From Aestuariispira insulae (GTDB lineage Bacteria; Pseudomonadota; Alphaproteobacteria; UBA8366; Aestuariispiraceae), in contig NZ_QRDW01000006.1 of the NCBI RefSeq assembly GCF_003385955.1, positions 1 to 64,000 of the forward strand: 64,000 bases of DNA, written 5' to 3'. Both the position numbers and the translations under genes were made by a program. Of the stretch, positions 1,961 to 64,000 are shown one piece after another. Numbering within the stretch: the stretch's first letter is position 1; each line of letters opens with the position of its first letter. Under the pieces are notes generated by a model, which ran no database searches, was not told the DNA's origin, and saw nothing but the letters and a program-made list of their open reading frames with translations.

Positions 1961-4900
1961 CCGTTGCCTCAGAAGGCAATTCCGGCCCATCAAGGGTCAG
2001 GCTTTCCCAGTTTTTGACCGTCAGACCAAGGGCATCAAAGGTCTGTTCGACACCGGCATTGTCCGGATTGCCGATGAAATCCTGCAATTCATGGAGGGCG
2101 GCCACAATATCCGGATTTTCCAGATCTTCCGCGCTATAGCTGACCACCAGGCTGTCGGTGCCGTCCCCGCCGTCATAAATCTCGCCTTCGCCGCCTTCAC
2201 CCACGGTGAAGAGACCGGTATCCGAGCCGTCACCGCCGCGCACATCATCCACATCCACACCGCCATCCAGCGTGTCATCCCCGCCGCCGCCGATCAGCGT
2301 ATCATCCCCGGCACCACCGGTGATGACATCGTCACCTTCTTCAAATTCGGCAACTGTCACGGAAATGGTCTGGCTTTCTGAAGCCGTCTCACCATTGAAG
2401 GTCTCCGTGCCCGTGGCGGTCACGGTAACATCAAAGCCTTCCGCATCACTTGGCATCGTGATGGTCACACTGCCCAGCGCATCCAGTTCTTCCGCCGACG
2501 TGAATGTCCAAACGGTCGGATCGTCGGGATCCTGTGTCCCGGCACTTAAAACGGCATCTTCGGGGACGCCGCTGATGGTGACTGTAAGCGCTTCGTTATC
2601 GTCCACCAGTGCCGCCGCAATACCAAGCGGCGCGGTGACCAGATTATCCGGCTCGCCATCACCAACCAAAACATCGCTGCCCGAACCGCCGGCGATCATG
2701 TCATCACCACCACCGCCACGCAGATGCTGGTCACTGTCCGAAGCCGACCCGTCGACGGAATCGTCCCCGCCCAGGCCATCAGAATCGGTTGCGGTAACTT
2801 CTTCTTCTGCGGTCAGTGTCACGCCATCCGCACCGATATCAACCGTATGGGTCGAAATCGTGCTGGAAGTAACCGTATTGTCGGCATCATCGGAAGAGGC
2901 AACAGAGACCTCAAACTCAGTATCCGCCGCCAGATCCGTTCCCGCCACATCTGCAGACCAGGAGCCATCTGCCCCAACGGTCGCGGTGTAATCGGTACCG
3001 TTCACGGTGAAACTGACCGTATCACCTTCCGAGATATCGCCGCCGGTCGCCATGCCGGATACGGTAATGTCACCCCCGGCTTCCGTGGCCGTGACAACAT
3101 CATCACTGGTGATCGCATCAACCGAGACAGTCCCGGCCTCCGCTTGGGTATCAACCATGTGGGTTGAGGTCGTGCTGGAAGTGGTCGTGTTTCCGGCCGC
3201 ATCAGAGGAGGTTACAGAGACCTCAAACTCGGTATCCGCTGCCAGATCGGCACCAGCAACAACCACGGACCAAGTGCCATTGGCCCCCACCGTGGTGGAA
3301 TAATCCTTACCATTGACCGTGAAGCTGACCGTATCACCTTCTGAAACATCGCCACCAGCCGCGGTACCGGATACCGTGACATCCTCTCCGGCCTCCGCCA
3401 CATTAACCACATCATCGCTGGTGATGGCATCAACCGTGACCGTTCCGGCTTCCGCTTGCGTATCAACCGTATGGGTCGAGGTCGCGCTGGAGGTAACCGT
3501 GTTGCCTGCCGTATCGGAAGAGTCAACAGAGACCTCAAACTCGGTATCCGCCGCCAGGTCGGCACCGGCAACATCCACGGACCAAGAGCCGTCCGCCCCC
3601 ACCGTGGTGGAATAATCCGTGCCGTTAACCGTGAAGCTGACCGTGTCGCCTTCGGAAATATCACCGCCCGTCGCTGTGCCGGAAACCGCCACATCACCGC
3701 CGGCTTCCGCCGCATTAACCACATCATCGCTGGTGATGGAGGCCACCGTGACAGTGCCCGTTTCCGCTTCAGTATCAACCGTATGGGTCGAAGTTGCGCT
3801 GGAGGTGACCTCATTCCCGACAGCATCGGTGGAGGCAACATTAATCTCAAGTTCCGTGTCCGCTGCCAGGTCGGAACCGGCAACATCCACGGACCAGGTG
3901 CCATCCGCCCCAACGGTCGTCGAATAGTCTGTGCCATTCACGGTAAAACTGACCGTATCGCCTTCCGAGATATCGCCGCCGATTGCGGTACCGGAAACGG
4001 CCACGTCGCCGCCGGCTTCCGCCGCATTAACCACATCATCGCTGGTGATGGCATCAACCGTGACCGTCCCGGCTTCCGCTTGCGTATCAACCGTATGGGT
4101 CGAAGTTGCGCTGGAGGTGACCTCATTCCCGACAGCATCGGTGGAGACAACATTAATCTCAAATTCCGTGTCCGCCGCCAGATCCGTTCCCGCCACATCC
4201 ACGGACCAGGAACCATCGGCCCCAACGGTTGTCGAATAGTCTGTGCCATTCACGGTGAACCTGACCGTATCGCCTTCCGAGATATCACCGCCGGCCGCCA
4301 TGCCGGAAACGGTCACATCGCCGCCGGTTTCCTGAGCCGAGAGAATGCCGTCACTGGTGATCGGATCTACTGTGACAGAGCCTGCGTCGGCCTCGGTATC
4401 CGCCCCATGGACGGAAACACCGGAACTTGTAACCGCGTCACCGCCGCCACTGGTCGAAGAGACATAAACGGTGAATGCCTGATCCGCCGCCAGATCGGAC
4501 CCGGCCACATCCACAGACCAGGTGCCGTCGGCACCAACCGTCGTGGAATAATCGGTGCCATTGATGGTGAAGCTGACCGTATCACCTTCGGCAATATCAC
4601 CGCCGGTCGCAGTACCGGAAACCGTGATATCGCTTTCAGATTCTACTCCCGTCACCAGATCATCTTCGGTGATTGCATCCACCGTAACAGTGCCTGGCTC
4701 AGGCTGGGTGTCGCTTGGATTCGTGTCAATGCCGTTCCCGGTGCTGGTAACCGTATTGCCAGCCGCATCCGAAGAAGAGACTGTGACTTCAAACTCGGTA
4801 TCATCCCCCAGCACGCTACCCGGCACATCCGCCTGCCAGTTACCATCTGCATCCACAGTGGTTGTATAGGTGATCGGGCCATCCGGACCGTCAAGTGTGA

Positions 4901-8304: not shown

Positions 8305-8339
8305 CGTCTGAATTCCCTTCATCGTGGGAAGGCCAGACG
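8305..8339 (+). other. Inverted repeat in leader of the membrane hydroxylase gene
   Basis: CGTCTG (8305-8310) pairs with CAGACG (8334-8339) and TTCCC (8313-8317) pairs with GGGAA (8326-8330), an 11-bp stem with a small internal loop. It lies just before the ribosome site of the gene at 8356. No T-run follows, so it is not a clear terminator. A leader structure is inference. Confidence 0.45.
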
Positions 8340-8355
8340 AACAGGGGGAAAATGA

Positions 8356-9513
8356 ATGAATCAGGCCGAATTTCCAAAACGCCAGACCGAGGATATGAGC
8401 GATCGCGCCTTTCGCATGGGCGAAGGTAGGATCAGCGGCTTTATCTCCGTTGCGCTCGGCCTGCTGAGCATCCTGGCTGTGCTTTGTTACAAATTCCCAA
8501 GCTACCTCACCACACCGGAACTGCGCGCCGCCTATGATCCCGCCCTTTTGCGCGAGATCCTGAAATATGGCATGTGGGCCTCGATCACCTTCGGCCTGCT
8601 GACCTTTATCCTGAACCGGCGCAAACGGCTGGGGGCGGTTGGCATTCTGGCGACTTTGACCGCCTTTGCCCTGGGCGGCTATTGGGCCGAGGGCCCAGCC
8701 ATTGAGCCGACTGCGTATTTTGCAGGCTTGGACTGGCTGGTGCTGGATCTTCTGGCCACGGCCACCGTCTTTATCTTCATTGAGAAGCTCTGGCCGAAAT
8801 ATCGGGAACAGGCGATCCTGCGTCCGGAATGGGGCCATGACCTGGTCTATTTCGCCTTCAATCATCTGATGATCGGTGTGATCCTGTTGATCGTGAACGG
8901 TTTTGCGCCAAGCTATTTCAATTGGGCGGTGTCCGCCGGCTTCCAGGCCTGGATCCAGGACCTGCCGCTGATCCTTCAGGTGATCGGTCTGATCTTTGCC
9001 GCCGATTTTGCGCAGTATTGGGTCCATCGCCTGTTCCACACGGTGCCGTTCCTCTGGCGCTTTCACGCGGTACATCACAGTTCAGAAAACATGGACTGGC
9101 TGGCCGGTTCGCGCACCCATTTTCTGGATACGCTGTGCGTGCGATCCTTCTCCATGGTGATGATCTACCTTTTGGGTGCATCGAAAGAGGCACTGGATAT
9201 CTATGTGGTCTTCGCCAGTTTCCAGGCGGTCTTCATCCATGCCAATTTCAGCGGCAATTTCGGTCCGCTGCGCTATCTGATCACCACACCGCAGTTTCAT
9301 CACTGGCATCATTCGTCGGACGCAATCGCGATTGATATGAATTATGCCGCCCATCTGCCGCTGCTGGACAAAATTTTTGGCACTTACCTCATGCCGGGGC
9401 AGCATTGGCCGGAAAAATACGGCACCGTTGGCGACCCGCTGCCCCGGGGCATCATCAAGCAGCATCTTTACCCCTTCCTGCCGGCACCAAAATCCGAAAC
9501 TCAGCCCAAATAG
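8356..9513 (+). CDS. Sterol desaturase / fatty acid hydroxylase superfamily membrane di-iron enzyme
   Basis: A 385-aa integral membrane protein. Several hydrophobic segments fill roughly residues 30-200. The di-iron histidine clusters follow: HRLFH, then FHAVHHSSE, then FHHWHHS in the C-terminal third. These are the histidine boxes of the fatty acid hydroxylase superfamily, which uses O2 to hydroxylate or desaturate lipids in the membrane. The length exceeds the core family (about 250 aa) because of extra N-terminal membrane segments. AGGGGG at 8343-8348 precedes two overlapping ATGs (8352 out of frame, 8356 in frame). The 3' end overlaps the convergent rhombosortase gene by 59 bp. Substrate unknown. 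Confidence 0.82.
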   Translation: MNQAEFPKRQTEDMSDRAFRMGEGRISGFISVALGLLSILAVLCYKFPSYLTTPELRAAYDPALLREILKYGMWASITFGLLTFILNRRKRLGAVGILATLTAFALGGYWAEGPAIEPTAYFAGLDWLVLDLLATATVFIFIEKLWPKYREQAILRPEWGHDLVYFAFNHLMIGVILLIVNGFAPSYFNWAVSAGFQAWIQDLPLILQVIGLIFAADFAQYWVHRLFHTVPFLWRFHAVHHSSENMDWLAGSRTHFLDTLCVRSFSMVMIYLLGASKEALDIYVVFASFQAVFIHANFSGNFGPLRYLITTPQFHHWHHSSDAIAIDMNYAAHLPLLDKIFGTYLMPGQHWPEKYGTVGDPLPRGIIKQHLYPFLPAPKSETQPK

Positions 9514-10111
9514 AAGATAGTGCAGCCCAGATCAGGCCCAGAACCCCGCCAGCCAGGAAACCCGCCAGATGGGCGTCCGGCATGGCGGGCCAGGCCAGAT
9601 CCATCACCAAACTGTTCGTGCTCAGCATTTCATAGCCGATCTTGAAAAGCGCACCCAAGGCAAAGAGCCAACAAATGCGTCGGTCCAGAACATCGCGCAA
9701 CGCCACAAGGCAAAAAGCCAGTAGGCCGTTCAATATCGCGGAAAGACCACAATAATAGGCGATGTCCGGACGGCCCAGCCAGAGATAGCCATCCAAAACC
9801 ACCATCAGCACTGCTGAGACAAGGGCCAGCAGAGCGGCGCGGCAGCGGGCAATCATTTCCAGGAACAGGCCGATCAGCACAAAGGCAAGACCGTTCCAGA
9901 GCAAATGCTGCGGATCCAGATGAACCAGATGGCCGGTTACCAGCCGCCAATATTCACCGCCGACAATCGCCTCACGGTGGTAGGTAAAGATTTCGGGCAC
10001 AAAGCCCGCCACACCAGCCAGCGCCAGAAGAACGGCAAGACCACCCAGGGTGAACCAGGGCGGCGTAAGACCGCCCCGGTTTTCCTCGCCAGCCATAATC
10101 CAACCGGTCAT
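9455..10111 (-). CDS. rrtA: Rhombosortase (rhomboid-family serine protease)
   Basis: A 218-aa polytopic membrane protein of the rhomboid fold. The catalytic serine lies in YCGLSAILNG (about residue 122) and the histidine in MPDAHLAGFLAGG (about residue 182). An early VTGHLVHLDPQHLLWN segment carries the conserved His/Asn region. Rhombosortases cleave GlyGly-CTERM tails of exported proteins at the inner membrane. The gene overlaps the stop of the upstream VIT-vWA gene by ATGA (10108-10111), so the two are translationally coupled. That upstream protein ends in a GlyGly-CTERM-like tail, which makes it the obvious substrate. The family is best known from gammaproteobacteria such as Vibrio and Shewanella. 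Confidence 0.85.
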   Translation of the reverse strand: MTGWIMAGEENRGGLTPPWFTLGGLAVLLALAGVAGFVPEIFTYHREAIVGGEYWRLVTGHLVHLDPQHLLWNGLAFVLIGLFLEMIARCRAALLALVSAVLMVVLDGYLWLGRPDIAYYCGLSAILNGLLAFCLVALRDVLDRRICWLFALGALFKIGYEMLSTNSLVMDLAWPAMPDAHLAGFLAGGVLGLIWAALSSIWAEFRILVPAGRGKDAA

Positions 10112-12213
10112 TTCCGCCTCCCGCGGGACAGCAGCGCCACCCCACCCAGCAGAGCCATGAAGACCGCCCAGAACGGGCCAAGCGCACTGGAGCCGCCGCC
10201 ACTGGTGCCACCGCCGCTGTAGCTGGGACGCGGTTTCTGAAAGGCCGGTGTCTGTTGGTCCACGCGGTTGCTGGTGACCTGAGCCTGGGCGCGCGCGGCC
10301 TGGGCCAGCTGCTCACTTTCAACCCGATCCTTATTCTTCCGGTCAATGCCGCGTTGTTTGAAAACCTCTTCGCGCAGCACGATCATGGAGGTATAGGGTG
10401 TCACGATTCCGTTCTCGACCGAGAGATCCACCACCGCCTGCTTTCGGTCCTCATCAGCACCGAAGGTCGCATCATCCTTCATCATGCCTTCAATGGCAGC
10501 AAAGGCCCACAGACGCTCAATCTCGGGATTCTCGTCACTGGTCTCCGGGAAGGGAAAACGGGATTGATAGGTGACATCACGGCCCGATATCTTGGCCCGG
10601 ATCGTCACATCCGCCTCCCCGCCTTTCCAATAATGGCCGAACAGGACCAATTGCTGGCCACGATAGAGGCTGCCGATCCGCTGTGGCTCCAGGCTGGTCA
10701 CCTTGACCCCATCGATATCGACCGACATATCATGCAGCGCCTCATGCCCCAGCTTGCTGGTGGCGGACATGATCGCACCGACAATATCGTCACTGTTGGA
10801 AAGGGCCAGCGCCGTGCCGCCGGATTCGCTCGAAACCTGGGTCAGCAACGGCCGGTTGGCGCTGTTGCCCATCATCATGGTAAAGAGGCGCACATCCTGA
10901 TTTTGAACCAATTCCAGGAACTTCCGCTTTTCCGTTTCTCCCACATTGGCAACCCCGTCGGTCACCAGGATCAGACCCGTCGTGCGGTCGGCATCCAGTC
11001 CCTTGAGCCCCGTGGCCATCCCGGCATAGAGATTGGTGCCATTATCGGGCCGGACGGTTTTCAACAGATCGATCATCGAGCGGACATTCGCCTCGGTCGC
11101 GGGCTGGAAATCCCTTGTGAGCTCACGCACCGAACTGTCAAACAGGACGATCCGGAAGCGGTCGTTGGGCGGCACCTTGTGAAGCGCCTGCTCAACCCCT
11201 TCCAGCAGTGTATCGAACTTGCCCTCCATGGAGCCGGATTTATCCAGTACAAAGACCCAATCACGCCCCTTGGTGATCGGGGCCAGATCATCCCCCGGTG
11301 TCGCCACCAGCATGAAAGTGCCGCGCTTGCCCGCCTCCGGCTTATGGGTGATCAGGTCGATGGATCCAGGCAGGCCGTCTTGATGCCGCCAATAGGTGAT
11401 GATGTCCGTGTCAAGGCGGAACGGCTGGCTCTTCAGGGCGATTTCGCCCTGACCACCATCAATCGCCACGGCCTCCCCATCGCCTTCATAACCGGCCAAC
11501 CGGACACCGTTATCCAGATGCACCTTCCATTCATGGTCTTTCAGGCGGGTGATTTGGGCCTGGGGATGTTTCGGCAGGCGCAGGGCTTCGATCGGATAGC
11601 CGTTGCGCAGGGTAAGATCGAAAGAGAACCGACCCGTCACCTGGTCCTGGGACGTCCAAAAGGACATTTTTTCAGGATCAACCCCGCCCTCTTCCAGCGG
11701 ATAGTTATAGCGCCCGACACCGGTATCCATATGGGTTGGCTGGATATATCCCAGGCGGATCCTCACATCCTGGCCAGCGCGTACCGGCCAGACCGAGATA
11801 TCGAAGGTTTTATAGTCATCCTGCTCGGTCAGCGCCGCCTCGCGGCCGCTGGCCTTTTCCTCTTCGTAGATCTTGCGGGCCTCAGCCTTTTCCATCACCT
11901 CCCCCTGAACCGGCTTGCCGTCGATCCAATAGGTGAAGCTGCTGACCGCGGCCTTTTCCGGGACGGGGAAGGAATAGACCGCTTCCAGATCCCGGCCATG
12001 GGGATTGGTGAAAACCTGTTCCACCGTGGTGATGGCATAGCCATCCTCGATCACAACATCGACCTTGTGGTCCCGAATCTCCAGCGGCGCTTGCCCGCCA
12101 TGGACGGGGGTGAGCAGACCGGCCGCTTGCGCGTCGGTCAGGGTTGCCGTGCCCGCCACCAGCAGGCCCGAGAGACAGATCCCTGTCATGAGTTTTCGTT
12201 TCAAGGATATCAT
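10108..12213 (-). CDS. VIT and von Willebrand factor A domain protein with GlyGly-CTERM tail
   Basis: A 701-aa exported protein. It has a signal peptide (about residues 1-30), a VIT domain (about 35-165, with VFTNPHGRDLEAVYSFPVP), a vWA domain (about 305-480) with an intact MIDAS motif DKSGSM, a C-terminal region to about 640, and a tail of Gly/Ser spacer, hydrophobic helix and SRGRRK. The tail is a GlyGly-CTERM signal, not the LPxTG signal found in otherwise similar marine proteobacterial sortase-target proteins. The gene follows a 53-aa membrane protein and overlaps the rhombosortase. GAGGAG precedes the ATG at 12213, and a TetR-type operator lies just upstream of that site. Role: surface-displayed, metal-dependent adhesion or binding, by inference. 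Confidence 0.85.
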   Translation of the reverse strand: MISLKRKLMTGICLSGLLVAGTATLTDAQAAGLLTPVHGGQAPLEIRDHKVDVVIEDGYAITTVEQVFTNPHGRDLEAVYSFPVPEKAAVSSFTYWIDGKPVQGEVMEKAEARKIYEEEKASGREAALTEQDDYKTFDISVWPVRAGQDVRIRLGYIQPTHMDTGVGRYNYPLEEGGVDPEKMSFWTSQDQVTGRFSFDLTLRNGYPIEALRLPKHPQAQITRLKDHEWKVHLDNGVRLAGYEGDGEAVAIDGGQGEIALKSQPFRLDTDIITYWRHQDGLPGSIDLITHKPEAGKRGTFMLVATPGDDLAPITKGRDWVFVLDKSGSMEGKFDTLLEGVEQALHKVPPNDRFRIVLFDSSVRELTRDFQPATEANVRSMIDLLKTVRPDNGTNLYAGMATGLKGLDADRTTGLILVTDGVANVGETEKRKFLELVQNQDVRLFTMMMGNSANRPLLTQVSSESGGTALALSNSDDIVGAIMSATSKLGHEALHDMSVDIDGVKVTSLEPQRIGSLYRGQQLVLFGHYWKGGEADVTIRAKISGRDVTYQSRFPFPETSDENPEIERLWAFAAIEGMMKDDATFGADEDRKQAVVDLSVENGIVTPYTSMIVLREEVFKQRGIDRKNKDRVESEQLAQAARAQAQVTSNRVDQQTPAFQKPRPSYSGGGTSGGGSSALGPFWAVFMALLGGVALLSRGRRK

Positions 12214-12230: not shown

Positions 12231-12243
12231 TGAACGCCGTTCA
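12231..12243. promoter_or_regulatory. TGAAC-N3-GTTCA operator 1
   Basis: TGAACGCCGTTCA lies between the 53-aa gene and the VIT-vWA gene, just upstream of the latter's ribosome site. It matches three other copies in the locus. It is the proposed binding site of the divergent TetR protein (inference). Confidence 0.7.
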
Positions 12244-12271
12244 ATATTCAGATGAAAAAGGGGATGTCCCG

Positions 12272-12433
12272 CTATCGGGCAAAGGGGTTTAACCGGTTTT
12301 CCAGGACCTGGATCAGGTCCGGTAAAAAAGTTGCCGCCGGTTTTGCCTGCATCAGGTAACTTGATAGAAAGATTGTCAGAATGCCGGCCATGGTGGCCAT
12401 GGAGGCAGCAAGGAACTGGGATTTACTCAACAT
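12272..12433 (-). CDS. Small single-pass membrane protein, 53 aa
   Basis: A small gene starting at ATG 12433 and ending with TAG at 12272-12274. An AAAGGA ribosome site lies 7 nt before the ATG. The product begins MLSKSQFLAASMATMAG, has one hydrophobic segment at about residues 9-28 and a short polar tail ending in NRLNPFAR. I do not recognise a family. It is the first gene of the minus-strand transcription unit continuing into the VIT-vWA protein and rhombosortase, with operator 2 about 25 nt upstream of its start. It could be a partner or chaperone of the surface protein in the inner membrane. The good ribosome site and position are the main evidence. Confidence 0.65.
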   Translation of the reverse strand: MLSKSQFLAASMATMAGILTIFLSSYLMQAKPAATFLPDLIQVLENRLNPFAR

Positions 12434-12457
12434 GATACCGTCCTTTCATTCTTTTAA

Positions 12458-12470
12458 TGAACATCGTTCA
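12458..12470. promoter_or_regulatory. TGAAC-N3-GTTCA operator 2
   Basis: TGAACATCGTTCA lies 25 nt upstream of the 53-aa gene start, where it would overlap the minus-strand promoter or early leader. A bound TetR repressor here would shut off the whole surface-protein operon (inference). Confidence 0.75.
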
Positions 12471-12507
12471 TTTTTTAGCGTGAACAAAACCGCTTTCGCG
12501 GATTTTC

Positions 12508-12534
12508 TGAACATCATTTATTGAACGCTGTTCA
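12508..12534. promoter_or_regulatory. TGAAC-N3-GTTCA operator 3 with adjacent degenerate half-site
   Basis: A perfect site TGAACGCTGTTCA lies at 12522-12534. A degenerate copy, TGAACATCATTTA, abuts it at 12508-12520. This pair sits in the middle of the divergent intergenic region next to a TATATA sequence at 12538-12543. Confidence 0.7.
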
Positions 12535-12574
12535 GTTTATATAGCTTGAACTGATCAGGGGCGCAACCGTAAAA

Positions 12575-12587
12575 TGAACGATGTTCA
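12575..12587. promoter_or_regulatory. TGAAC-N3-GTTCA operator 4 (autoregulatory)
   Basis: TGAACGATGTTCA lies 17 nt upstream of the TetR start codon and just before its AAGGA ribosome site. This suggests that the regulator represses its own gene. Confidence 0.75.
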
Positions 12588-12604: not shown

Positions 12605-13210
12605 ATGGCCCGCCGGTCCGACCATAACCGAGAAGAACTCTATGCGCTGGCCATGCAGGCCGCCCGTGATATTGCGGTGCATGACGGGCTGAAGGGCCTG
12701 ACCGCGCGCAATATTGCCAAGCGGATCGGCTATTCCGCGGGCACGCTTTATAACCTGTTCAAGAATCTGGATGAGATCGCTCTGCATGTGAATGCGGGCA
12801 CGCTGGATCAGTTGCATGACCGCTTGGGCGAAGTGGCATTATCCGGCAAGCCGAAGAAGGATATCCGCCAGCTGCTGGACGCCTATCTTGATTTCATCGG
12901 CGGGAATGACCGGCTCTGGTCCCTGCTTTTCGACCATAAGCTGCCCGACGGCACGCCCCTGCCTGACTGGTACCGGGCGCGGATCGCGCGGGTTCTCTCC
13001 CTGCTGGAGGCGGCGCTTGCACCGCTTTTCCCGGAACCGGACCATCCGGAATGCCAGCTCTCTGCCCGCGTGCTCTGGTCCAGCCTGCACGGCATCTGCC
13101 AGCTGGCCAATGCTGACAAGCTGGAAATTGTCTCGGACGAGGATACAAGGGCGCTGGCCCATGCGCTGGTGGAAAACTACCTGGCGGGGTTGAAGGCACG
13201 GCTGGGGTAG
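12605..13210 (+). CDS. TetR-family transcriptional regulator with WHG-type C-terminal domain
   Basis: A 201-aa regulator. The N-terminal helix-turn-helix covers about residues 10-57 (LTARNIAKRIGYSAGTLYNL). The C-terminal ligand/dimer domain includes the WSSLHGICQL segment that marks the WHG subgroup of TetR proteins. AAGGA lies 6 nt before the ATG. The gene is divergent from the 53-aa/VIT-vWA/rhombosortase operon, and the same dyad TGAAC-N3-GTTCA occurs four times around both starts. Repression of both directions is therefore the simplest reading. The inducing ligand is unknown. Confidence 0.88.
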   Translation: MARRSDHNREELYALAMQAARDIAVHDGLKGLTARNIAKRIGYSAGTLYNLFKNLDEIALHVNAGTLDQLHDRLGEVALSGKPKKDIRQLLDAYLDFIGGNDRLWSLLFDHKLPDGTPLPDWYRARIARVLSLLEAALAPLFPEPDHPECQLSARVLWSSLHGICQLANADKLEIVSDEDTRALAHALVENYLAGLKARLG

Positions 13211-13434: not shown

Positions 13435-13743
13435 ATGAGGCGATCGGTAGTTTTCGGAGCATTGTTGCTCGGGGCTTGTCAAACAGTACCAGTCACACAG
13501 CACGGGAATGTGCTCGCAGCAGGACCAGACGCCGTGAAAGATTGCAAGAGCGCAGGTATCGTTTTCGGTCAATCCGATAAAGGTGGAGTGTGGATTAAGT
13601 ACGGAATCAATGAAGCCAAGATTGAAGCCATGGAGCAAGCCGAGCAAATACAAGCGACACACGTGACTTGGCAGGATTTTCAATCTAATAACGGCTGGAC
13701 CTCCGTAAAAGGAGAAGCTTGGAGATGCAAAGGACTTGACTAA
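13435..13743 (+). CDS. Small putative lipoprotein
   Basis: A 102-aa protein with a lipoprotein signal: basic start MRRS, hydrophobic core, lipobox LLLGAC with Cys at about residue 14. The mature part has a conserved-looking pattern (DAVKDCKSAGIVFG ... WIKYGINEAK ... A-EQ-QATHVTW) resembling the DUF4156 class of small envelope proteins; this match is from memory and uncertain. The start at 13435 is chosen because GGGGGAG lies 8 nt upstream and because the signal peptide begins there; an upstream in-frame start at 13378 would bury the signal. Base composition of the gene and its 220-bp upstream gap is visibly more AT-rich than its neighbours, a possible sign of transfer. Confidence 0.7.
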   Translation: MRRSVVFGALLLGACQTVPVTQHGNVLAAGPDAVKDCKSAGIVFGQSDKGGVWIKYGINEAKIEAMEQAEQIQATHVTWQDFQSNNGWTSVKGEAWRCKGLD

Positions 13744-63428: not shown

Positions 63429-64000
63429 CTATGCGGCAAGTTCCGCCGCCCTCTGATAGTCAATTTTGCCGGTTCCCAGCAGTGGCACCGCCGCCACCAC
63501 GCGCACCTCACGCGGCACCATCAGTTCGGCCACGCCTTCCTCTTTGGCATGGGCTGATAGGGCGGCCCTGGAGGCATCATCGCGATCAGTCACCAAAACC
63601 AGTTGTTCGCCTTTCCTGGCATCCGGCACGGCAATCACCGCATGAAGGCTGTCCGGCCAGAGTTTGGCCGCCTGCCCCTCCACTGCTGTAAGCGAAACCA
63701 TTTCACCCGCGATCTTGGCAAAGCGCTTGGCCCGCCCCTGGATGGTGACAAACCCATCCGCATCGATTGAGACAATATCGCCGGTATCGTACCAGCCGCC
63801 AGCCGGAGGCTGTAACTCACCCGGCCGGTCCGCCATCAGATAGCCTTTCATGATATTGGGACCGGAAACATACAACCTGCCGCCTTTCTCAATACCCGGC
63901 ACCGGTTTCAGTTCGGCCCGGATGCCTGGCAGCAGGCGCCCGACCGTACCTGCCTGGAAATGCATTGGTGAATTCACCGCGAGCACCGGTGCCGTCTCGG
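63429..64000 (-). CDS. aas: Acyl-ACP synthetase / 2-acylglycerophosphoethanolamine acyltransferase, C-terminal part (5' end off window)
   Basis: About 190 C-terminal codons of an AMP-forming enzyme, entering from the right edge in frame as ETAPVLAVNSPMHF. It shows GRLYVSGPNIMKGYL, GGWYDTGDIVSIDADGFVTI and RAKRFAKIAGEMVSLTAVE, then the catalytic Lys region LLGTGKIDYQRA. The hinge reads GRAKRFAKIAGEMVS as in the acyl-ACP synthetase domain of Aas, which re-acylates lysophospholipids in the membrane. A plain fatty-acid or acyl-ACP ligase cannot be excluded because the acyltransferase domain would lie outside the window. Confidence 0.78.
   Translation of the reverse strand, partial: ETAPVLAVNSPMHFQAGTVGRLLPGIRAELKPVPGIEKGGRLYVSGPNIMKGYLMADRPGELQPPAGGWYDTGDIVSIDADGFVTIQGRAKRFAKIAGEMVSLTAVEGQAAKLWPDSLHAVIAVPDARKGEQLVLVTDRDDASRAALSAHAKEEGVAELMVPREVRVVAAVPLLGTGKIDYQRAAELAA

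What the first reader, a model, noticed from the sequence alone, without database searches (positions are those of the whole stretch)
12231..12587. Four copies of TGAAC-N3-GTTCA around a divergent TetR gene
Four perfect copies (12231, 12458, 12522, 12575) plus a degenerate one (12508) lie within 357 bp. Copies flank the tetR start, the 53-aa gene start and the vWA ribosome site. Such repetition is very unlikely by chance and indicates bidirectional repression plus an internal control point before the vWA gene.
Basis: partly seen in the sequence, partly recalled or inferred. Interest (0 to 1): 0.7.

Follow-up and report, generated by a model that had tools for sequence, protein, structure and literature searches.

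The report
Operator cluster for a conserved TetR regulon
Four copies of a 13-base palindrome in front of a regulator gene are very probably that regulator's docking sites, and related bacteria suggest that the same switch governs both a processed surface protein and a membrane-lipid repair enzyme, a pairing for which I found no report.

Summary
Confirmed and extended. The four perfect TGAAC-N3-GTTCA palindromes are where stated. The 4.82-Mb genome holds only eight; of the other four, three lie in open frames and one (C6:67868, 3.9 kb past the window) lies just upstream of a predicted hydrolase - acyl-ACP:phospholipid O-acyltransferase (LplT-Aas-type) operon. Among 80 named relatives of this TetR, 44 carry a perfect copy within 350 bp upstream of tetR (reversed control: 0). 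In two genomes the VIT-vWA/rhombosortase pair lies away from tetR yet keeps the palindromes; one Magnetovibrio MAG holds rhombosortase-vWA<->tetR-hydrolase-Aas as one cluster. So the palindromes are best read as operators of this TetR, controlling tetR, the VIT-vWA/rhombosortase pair and a phospholipid-reacylation operon. The operator near the vWA start recurs in 7 of 13 vWA loci. The 53-aa ORF was found in none of the 80 loci. DNA binding, repression and ligand are untested. The palindrome equals the predicted site of actinobacterial BioQ, also TetR-type, so the motif is not new; the regulon appears to be. Verdict: real, a new regulon of a known kind.

The parts
12231..12243 (.). operator copy 1, perfect, 17 nt upstream of the vWA ATG, next to its ribosome site
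   Evidence: a copy 12-28 nt before the vWA ATG recurs in 7 of 13 vWA loci
12458..12470 (.). operator copy 2, perfect, 24 nt upstream of the 53-aa ORF start
12508..12520 (.). degenerate copy, 2 mismatches, adjoining copy 3
12522..12534 (.). operator copy 3, perfect, directly downstream of the putative leftward -10
12575..12587 (.). operator copy 4, perfect, overlapping the last base of the putative tetR -10
12546..12575 (+). putative tetR promoter TTGAAC-N18-TAAAAT
   Evidence: 1 found, 0.6 expected in shuffles: weak on its own
12538..12566 (-). putative leftward promoter TTGCGC-N17-TATATA
   Evidence: read by eye from the sequence printed; not listed by the scanner; placed like TTGAC-type promoters read by eye in L125, L128 and L173
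12605..13210 (+). TetR-family regulator, 201 aa
   Evidence: PF00440 and PF13305 above gathering scores; model, mean pLDDT 91
12272..12433 (-). 53-aa hydrophobic ORF, coding status doubtful
   Evidence: no family; 0 matches in 80 loci
10108..12213 (-). VIT + vWA protein, 701 aa, signal-like N terminus, Gly/Ser-rich tail + hydrophobic stretch + basic end
9455..10111 (-). rhombosortase, 218 aa, overlaps the vWA stop by 4 bases
   Evidence: TIGR03902 114.1 bits, cut-off 84
63432..64000 (-). 3' part of the LplT-Aas-type gene that runs on to C6:66839, second target operon; its operators lie outside the window at C6:67846-67858 (1 mismatch) and C6:67868-67880 (perfect)

Best explanation
The palindromes are operators of the adjacent TetR protein. 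Dimers bound at 12575 and at 12522 each cover the start region of one of two face-to-face promoters 53 bp apart, so the regulator represses itself (rightward) and the leftward VIT-vWA/rhombosortase transcript; the copy at 12231 lies in the leader just before the vWA ribosome site and probably blocks elongating polymerase or a second promoter. The same regulator controls, from two further sites 55 kb away, an operon of an alpha/beta hydrolase and an acyl-ACP:phospholipid O-acyltransferase fusion. A ligand, probably an acyl lipid, releases it. Shown by sequence: sites, statistics, conservation, co-location with these genes, adherence to vWA and hydrolase when tetR is elsewhere. Inferred: binding by this TetR, repression rather than activation, promoter positions, role of the near-start site, lipid ligand.
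For: Cluster far beyond chance. Perfect copy within 350 bp upstream of tetR in 44 of 80 named homologue loci, 53 of 80 with up to one mismatch, reversed control 0 of 80, only 4 perfect copies in the other 929 kb. Sites fit TGAACRNYGTTCA in 65 of 71. vWA orthologues in G030 and G021 lie on other contigs than tetR but carry three sites each, two perfect and one with a mismatch; 27 loci of distant VIT-vWA proteins (L075-L101) carry no perfect site. Hydrolase with a site pair away from tetR in the window genome and in G008; hydrolase within 5 kb of tetR in 12 of 80 and Aas in 26 of 80. L111 holds all in one cluster. Pair pattern in 16 of 385 class genomes, reversed control 0; 12 of the 16 pair-bearing genomes have a TetR homologue at E<=1e-20 against 0 of 40 pair-free genomes I picked.
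Against: No binding or expression data. 27 of 80 TetR homologues have no copy with up to one mismatch within 350 bp, mostly one Hyphomicrobiaceae clade, although recognition-helix residues are nearly the same and no other palindrome was found. 2 of the 16 pair-bearing genomes lack a homologue at 1e-10, and 2 of the class pairs look like repeats of another kind (L191, L198). 6 of 13 vWA loci have no near-start operator. Promoters are weak consensus matches. The 11 more distant TetR loci (L026, L029-L038) have no perfect site, as expected for non-orthologues, which also bounds the claim.
Confidence: 0.85

Rival explanations
1. The sites are bound by this TetR, but it acts as an activator or a dual regulator at the vWA and hydrolase promoters.
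For: Copies at several spacings up to about 180 bp from tetR starts; dual roles are known for TetR-type proteins such as LuxR of Vibrio harveyi (PMC2628434, search listing and abstract start only).
Against: Copies sit on or just after the putative -10 and next to the start codon, the usual place of repressor sites (inference).
Confidence: 0.1
2. Another regulator that favours the same palindrome, for example a BioQ-like TetR protein, is the true binder, and this TetR is a bystander.
For: TGAAC-N3-GTTCA is the predicted BioQ site (PMC3398298, passage read).
Against: The sites follow homologues of this TetR in 44 of 80 loci, and the window genome has no other match to it at E<=0.001. Of the window genome's four off-locus copies the only one outside an open frame is that at the hydrolase.
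Confidence: 0.04
3. The copies are a repeat element with no regulatory role.
For: Repetition alone could be a repeat.
Against: Only the palindromic arms are conserved; the central base and most flanking bases vary apart from an A/T preference, spacing and genomic place are conserved across families, and the reversed control is empty.
Confidence: 0.01

Closest known systems
BioQ (TetR-type biotin regulator of actinobacteria)
   Same: TetR family; predicted operator TGAAC-N3-GTTCA is identical (PMC3398298, passage).
   Different: BioQ sites lie before biotin genes in actinobacteria; here they lie before tetR, VIT-vWA/rhombosortase, hydrolase and Aas genes in alphaproteobacteria. No BioQ sequence was compared.
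Dedicated GlyGly-CTERM / rhombosortase pairs, including vault/vWA-type targets (PMC3237569, 2011)
   Same: Target gene adjacent to its own rhombosortase; VIT-vWA target; Gly/Ser-rich tail, hydrophobic stretch, basic end (passages read).
   Different: The tail here is not recognised by TIGR03501; that paper has no occurrence of 'TetR' in its main text.
TIGR03788 marine proteobacterial sortase target
   Same: Same VIT-vWA architecture, E 2.6e-67.
   Different: 227.7 bits against a cut-off of 551.65, and a rhombosortase in place of a sortase.
Acyl-CoA-responsive TetR regulators FadR and FasR
   Same: Structural and weak sequence similarity and a lipid-gene target.
   Different: Not the nearest: 3cjd of Jannaschia, of no stated function, is. 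Many non-lipid TetR proteins match equally well.
LplT-Aas lysophospholipid recycling (E. coli, recalled)
   Same: The target enzyme passes NF005291 acyl-[ACP]--phospholipid O-acyltransferase, 1673 bits, cut-off 1349.
   Different: One fused protein here; link to a TetR and to rhombosortase not found in the searches named in the report.

Membership tests
TetR family | TetR_N DNA-binding domain over the gathering score | tested here: met
   PF00440 31.4 bits, cut-off 24; PF13305 46 bits, cut-off 26.8
TetR family | all-helical dimer that binds a palindromic operator and is released by a ligand | not testable with these tools
   all-helical monomer model only
BioQ | operator TGAAC-N3-GTTCA | tested here: met
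   motif of BioQ
BioQ | operators before biotin genes | tested here: inconclusive
   of the 8 perfect copies only the four here and the hydrolase copy lie in front of genes; biotin genes were not searched for by name and one-mismatch copies were not all inspected
Rhombosortase (TIGR03902) | model score over cut-off | tested here: met
   114.1 bits, cut-off 84
GlyGly-CTERM (TIGR03501) | model match at the C terminus of the target | tested here: not met
   no match in the genome at E<=1, nor on the tail alone; only the tripartite look is there (read by eye)
TIGR03788 sortase target | model score over cut-off and adjacent sortase | tested here: not met
   227.7 of 551.65 bits; neighbour is a rhombosortase
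Acyl-[ACP]--phospholipid O-acyltransferase (NF005291) | model score over cut-off | tested here: met
   1673.3 bits, cut-off 1349
Acyl-CoA-responsive TetR (FadR/FasR) | release from DNA by acyl-CoA or related lipid | not testable with these tools
   sequence models only: FasR 26.5 of 330 bits and FadR 20.1 of 200 bits, far below cut-offs

The most novel reading that the evidence does not exclude
A widespread alphaproteobacterial envelope regulon: one lipid-sensing TetR repressor, by TGAACRNYGTTCA operators, jointly switches lysophospholipid re-acylation (hydrolase, LplT-Aas) and a dedicated rhombosortase with its VIT-vWA target, so that membrane-lipid damage or turnover calls out a processed surface protein. 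In some lineages DUF2339 and a fatty-acid hydroxylase are drawn in.
Probability: 0.4. Interest if true: 0.65.

Novelty: new member of a known kind. Interest (0 to 1): 0.5.

Why it matters
Neither the signal nor the role of rhombosortase-linked VIT-vWA proteins is known to me. Tying them by shared operators to phospholipid re-acylation gives a concrete, testable function (envelope lipid stress) and a regulator whose ligand can be screened. It also gives an operator motif with which further members can be found in alphaproteobacterial genomes.

Tried and rejected
A repeat element without function and chance were rejected. The three other off-locus perfect copies (C9:75694, C12:8225, C26:1199) were dropped as background because they lie within open frames; two of these three also break the RNY centre. 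A replacement palindrome in the 23 motif-poor Hyphomicrobiaceae loci (20 none, 3 with one mismatch) and in 4 Magnetococcales loci was looked for and not found. A DUF2339 homologue in the window genome was sought and not found, a search without positive control. A type II secretin over cut-off was not found: two partial matches below it, so the export route of the vWA protein is open. The 2-mismatch copy before the fatty-acid hydroxylase (8309-8321) was set aside as chance level. Structure search gave no ligand hint beyond general TetR similarity.

Paper searches for the motif, rhombosortase, VIT/biofilm (48), TetR with lysophospholipid or acyltransferase genes and BioQ (66) gave one paper with the motif (BioQ) and none seen that describes this regulon; only open-licence PMC papers are held, and apart from PMC3237569 and PMC3398298 (passages read) I saw listings and abstract starts only.

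Full report
Observation. The four perfect palindromes TGAAC-N3-GTTCA are at 12231, 12458, 12522 and 12575, and a copy with two mismatches at 12508. They fill the gap between a leftward VIT-vWA gene (10108-12213) and a rightward tetR (12605-13210), with a 53-aa ORF (12272-12433, leftward) inside. 20,000 dinucleotide shuffles of the gap gave a mean of 0.0003 perfect copies and never two. In the genome (4,823,716 bases, 49 contigs, the window is C6:1-64000) there are 8 perfect copies, reversed control 1; with up to one mismatch 123 against 36. With up to two mismatches the window shows no excess (24 against 21.0 expected).

The other four genome copies. Three (C9:75694, C12:8225, C26:1199) lie within open frames. 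The fourth, C6:67868-67880, lies about 50 bp upstream of the ATG of a 323-aa alpha/beta hydrolase (start C6:67816), with a one-mismatch copy at C6:67846-67858 between. 8 bases downstream of the hydrolase begins a 1136-aa protein that passes NF005291, acyl-[ACP]--phospholipid O-acyltransferase, 1673 bits against 1349, with MFS, acyltransferase and AMP-binding domains; its 3' part is at window 63432-64000. The hydrolase passes DUF676, putative serine esterase.

The genes. The regulator passes TetR_N and TetR_C_33. The vWA protein has VIT and vWA domains and a Gly/Ser-rich, hydrophobic, basic tail, which TIGR03501 does not recognise. The next gene overlaps it by 4 bases and passes the rhombosortase model (114.1 bits, cut-off 84).

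Conservation next to tetR. In 59 genomes, 31 have a match to the TetR at E<=0.001; I fetched 20 regions, one of them the window's own hydrolase region, and of the 19 relatives' tetR loci 14 have a perfect copy and 17 one with up to one mismatch within 400 bp upstream. An alignment of 16 TetRs used on genome contigs gave 180 relatives, of which the best 80 were kept. Of these 80 loci, some of them the same records as, 44 have a perfect copy and 53 a copy with up to one mismatch within 350 bp upstream of tetR; the reversed control gave 0 of 80; only 4 further perfect copies lie in the other 929 kb, two of them 709 and 740 bases past a tetR start. 65 of 71 perfect sites fit TGAACRNYGTTCA, with A/T-rich flanks. 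On a tree of 81 TetRs the motif is clustered (8 changes, shuffled mean 26.9); 27 of 80 loci have none within one mismatch, 20 of them in one Hyphomicrobiaceae clade of 23, where I found no replacement palindrome although the recognition-helix residues are nearly the same.

Operators without tetR beside them. Close vWA orthologues (59-61% identity) occur in 2 of the other 42 genomes of the order sample, G030 and G021, each followed by a rhombosortase (40-41% identity). Their tetR lies on another contig, beside hydrolase and Aas. Both vWA genes carry two perfect copies and one with a mismatch. None of the 27 loci with distant VIT-vWA proteins (L075-L101) has a perfect copy. In G008 a pair of copies precedes the hydrolase, and in G003 a pair precedes a DUF2339 protein. 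In the Magnetovibrio MAG L111 the whole set is one cluster, rhombosortase-vWA <- operators -> tetR-hydrolase-Aas. Within 5 kb of tetR in the 80 loci: vWA and rhombosortase 10, hydrolase 12, Aas 26, DUF2339 6, fatty-acid hydroxylase 1, 53-aa ORF 0; 35 of the 44 perfect-motif loci have at least one of vWA, hydrolase, Aas and DUF2339, against 2 of 27 without motif. The hydrolase and DUF2339 queries were picked in this work because of such sites, so the count is not blind.

Breadth. The pair pattern of two perfect copies 5-35 bases apart matched 9 of 43 genomes of the order and 16 of 385 of the class, reversed control 0 in both. Of the 16, 14 have a TetR homologue at 1e-10 and 12 at 1e-20; of 40 pair-free genomes that I picked by handle number, 9 and 0. 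These genomes were not matched for size. Two of the 16 pairs (L191, L198) have near-identical or repeat-like copies and may be unrelated. The window genome itself has no such perfect pair, since its copies stand further apart.

Layout and mechanism. The putative tetR promoter (12546-12575) ends where operator 12575-12587 begins. On the other strand TTGCGC (12566-12561), 17 bases, TATATA (12543-12538) is followed after 3 bases by operator 12534-12522; this promoter is my reading of the sequence, the scanner did not list it. Spacings of 52-54 bp between two such copies recur in L073, L074, L125, L128 and L173, some of these copies imperfect. A copy with 12-28 nt between it and the vWA ATG is found in 7 of 13 vWA loci (window, L073, L074, L111, L125, L128, L173), and not in L130 or the five Roseibium/Labrenzia loci. 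In L074 the ATG of the alignment was used in place of the longer frame, in L128 the ATG was read from the printed sequence because the frame is broken further on, and in L173 the first of two ATGs was used. In G030 and G021 the two copies nearest the vWA gene are about 100 bp apart against 227 in the window, so the 53-aa ORF lies in extra DNA. I take the near-start copy to be a roadblock or a second-promoter operator; this is inference.

Relation to what is known. The single palindrome is the predicted BioQ site of Corynebacterium (PMC3398298, passage). Dedicated rhombosortase-target pairs, and vault/vWA-type GlyGly-CTERM proteins, were described in 2011 (PMC3237569, passages). The nearest solved structure is 3cjd, a Jannaschia TetR protein of no stated function; FadR and FasR are among weaker matches. 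New, as far as the searches listed under Tried and rejected go, is the joining of the rhombosortase-VIT-vWA pair and phospholipid re-acylation under one TetR.

Verdict. Binding, direction of control and ligand remain to be shown.

Noticed in passing
window 9455-12213: VIT-vWA gene and a rhombosortase overlap by 4 bases, a dedicated processing pair; the target's tail escapes the GlyGly-CTERM model, and no type II secretin over cut-off was found in the genome.
   Followed up: partly
L144-L190, Hyphomicrobiaceae loci: A well-supported clade of 23 TetR homologues lacks the operator upstream of tetR (20 none, 3 with one mismatch) while the recognition helix hardly differs.
   Followed up: partly
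window 8356-9513: Fatty-acid hydroxylase gene; its homologue in G045 stands divergent to a TetR gene with three copies of the palindrome between (L058), while in the window only a chance-level 2-mismatch copy precedes it.
   Followed up: partly
G003:C2:1244145 (L109), L117, L118, L119, L122, L174: A large DUF2339 membrane protein repeatedly stands behind the same operators.
   Followed up: partly
window 13435-13743: 102-aa lipoprotein-like ORF downstream of tetR without any family above cut-off.
   Followed up: no
L073 about 3980-4180, L074 about 3980-4180: Upstream of the vWA gene in G030 and G021 lies a sequence that looks like the 3' part of a tmRNA gene; by eye only.
   Followed up: no
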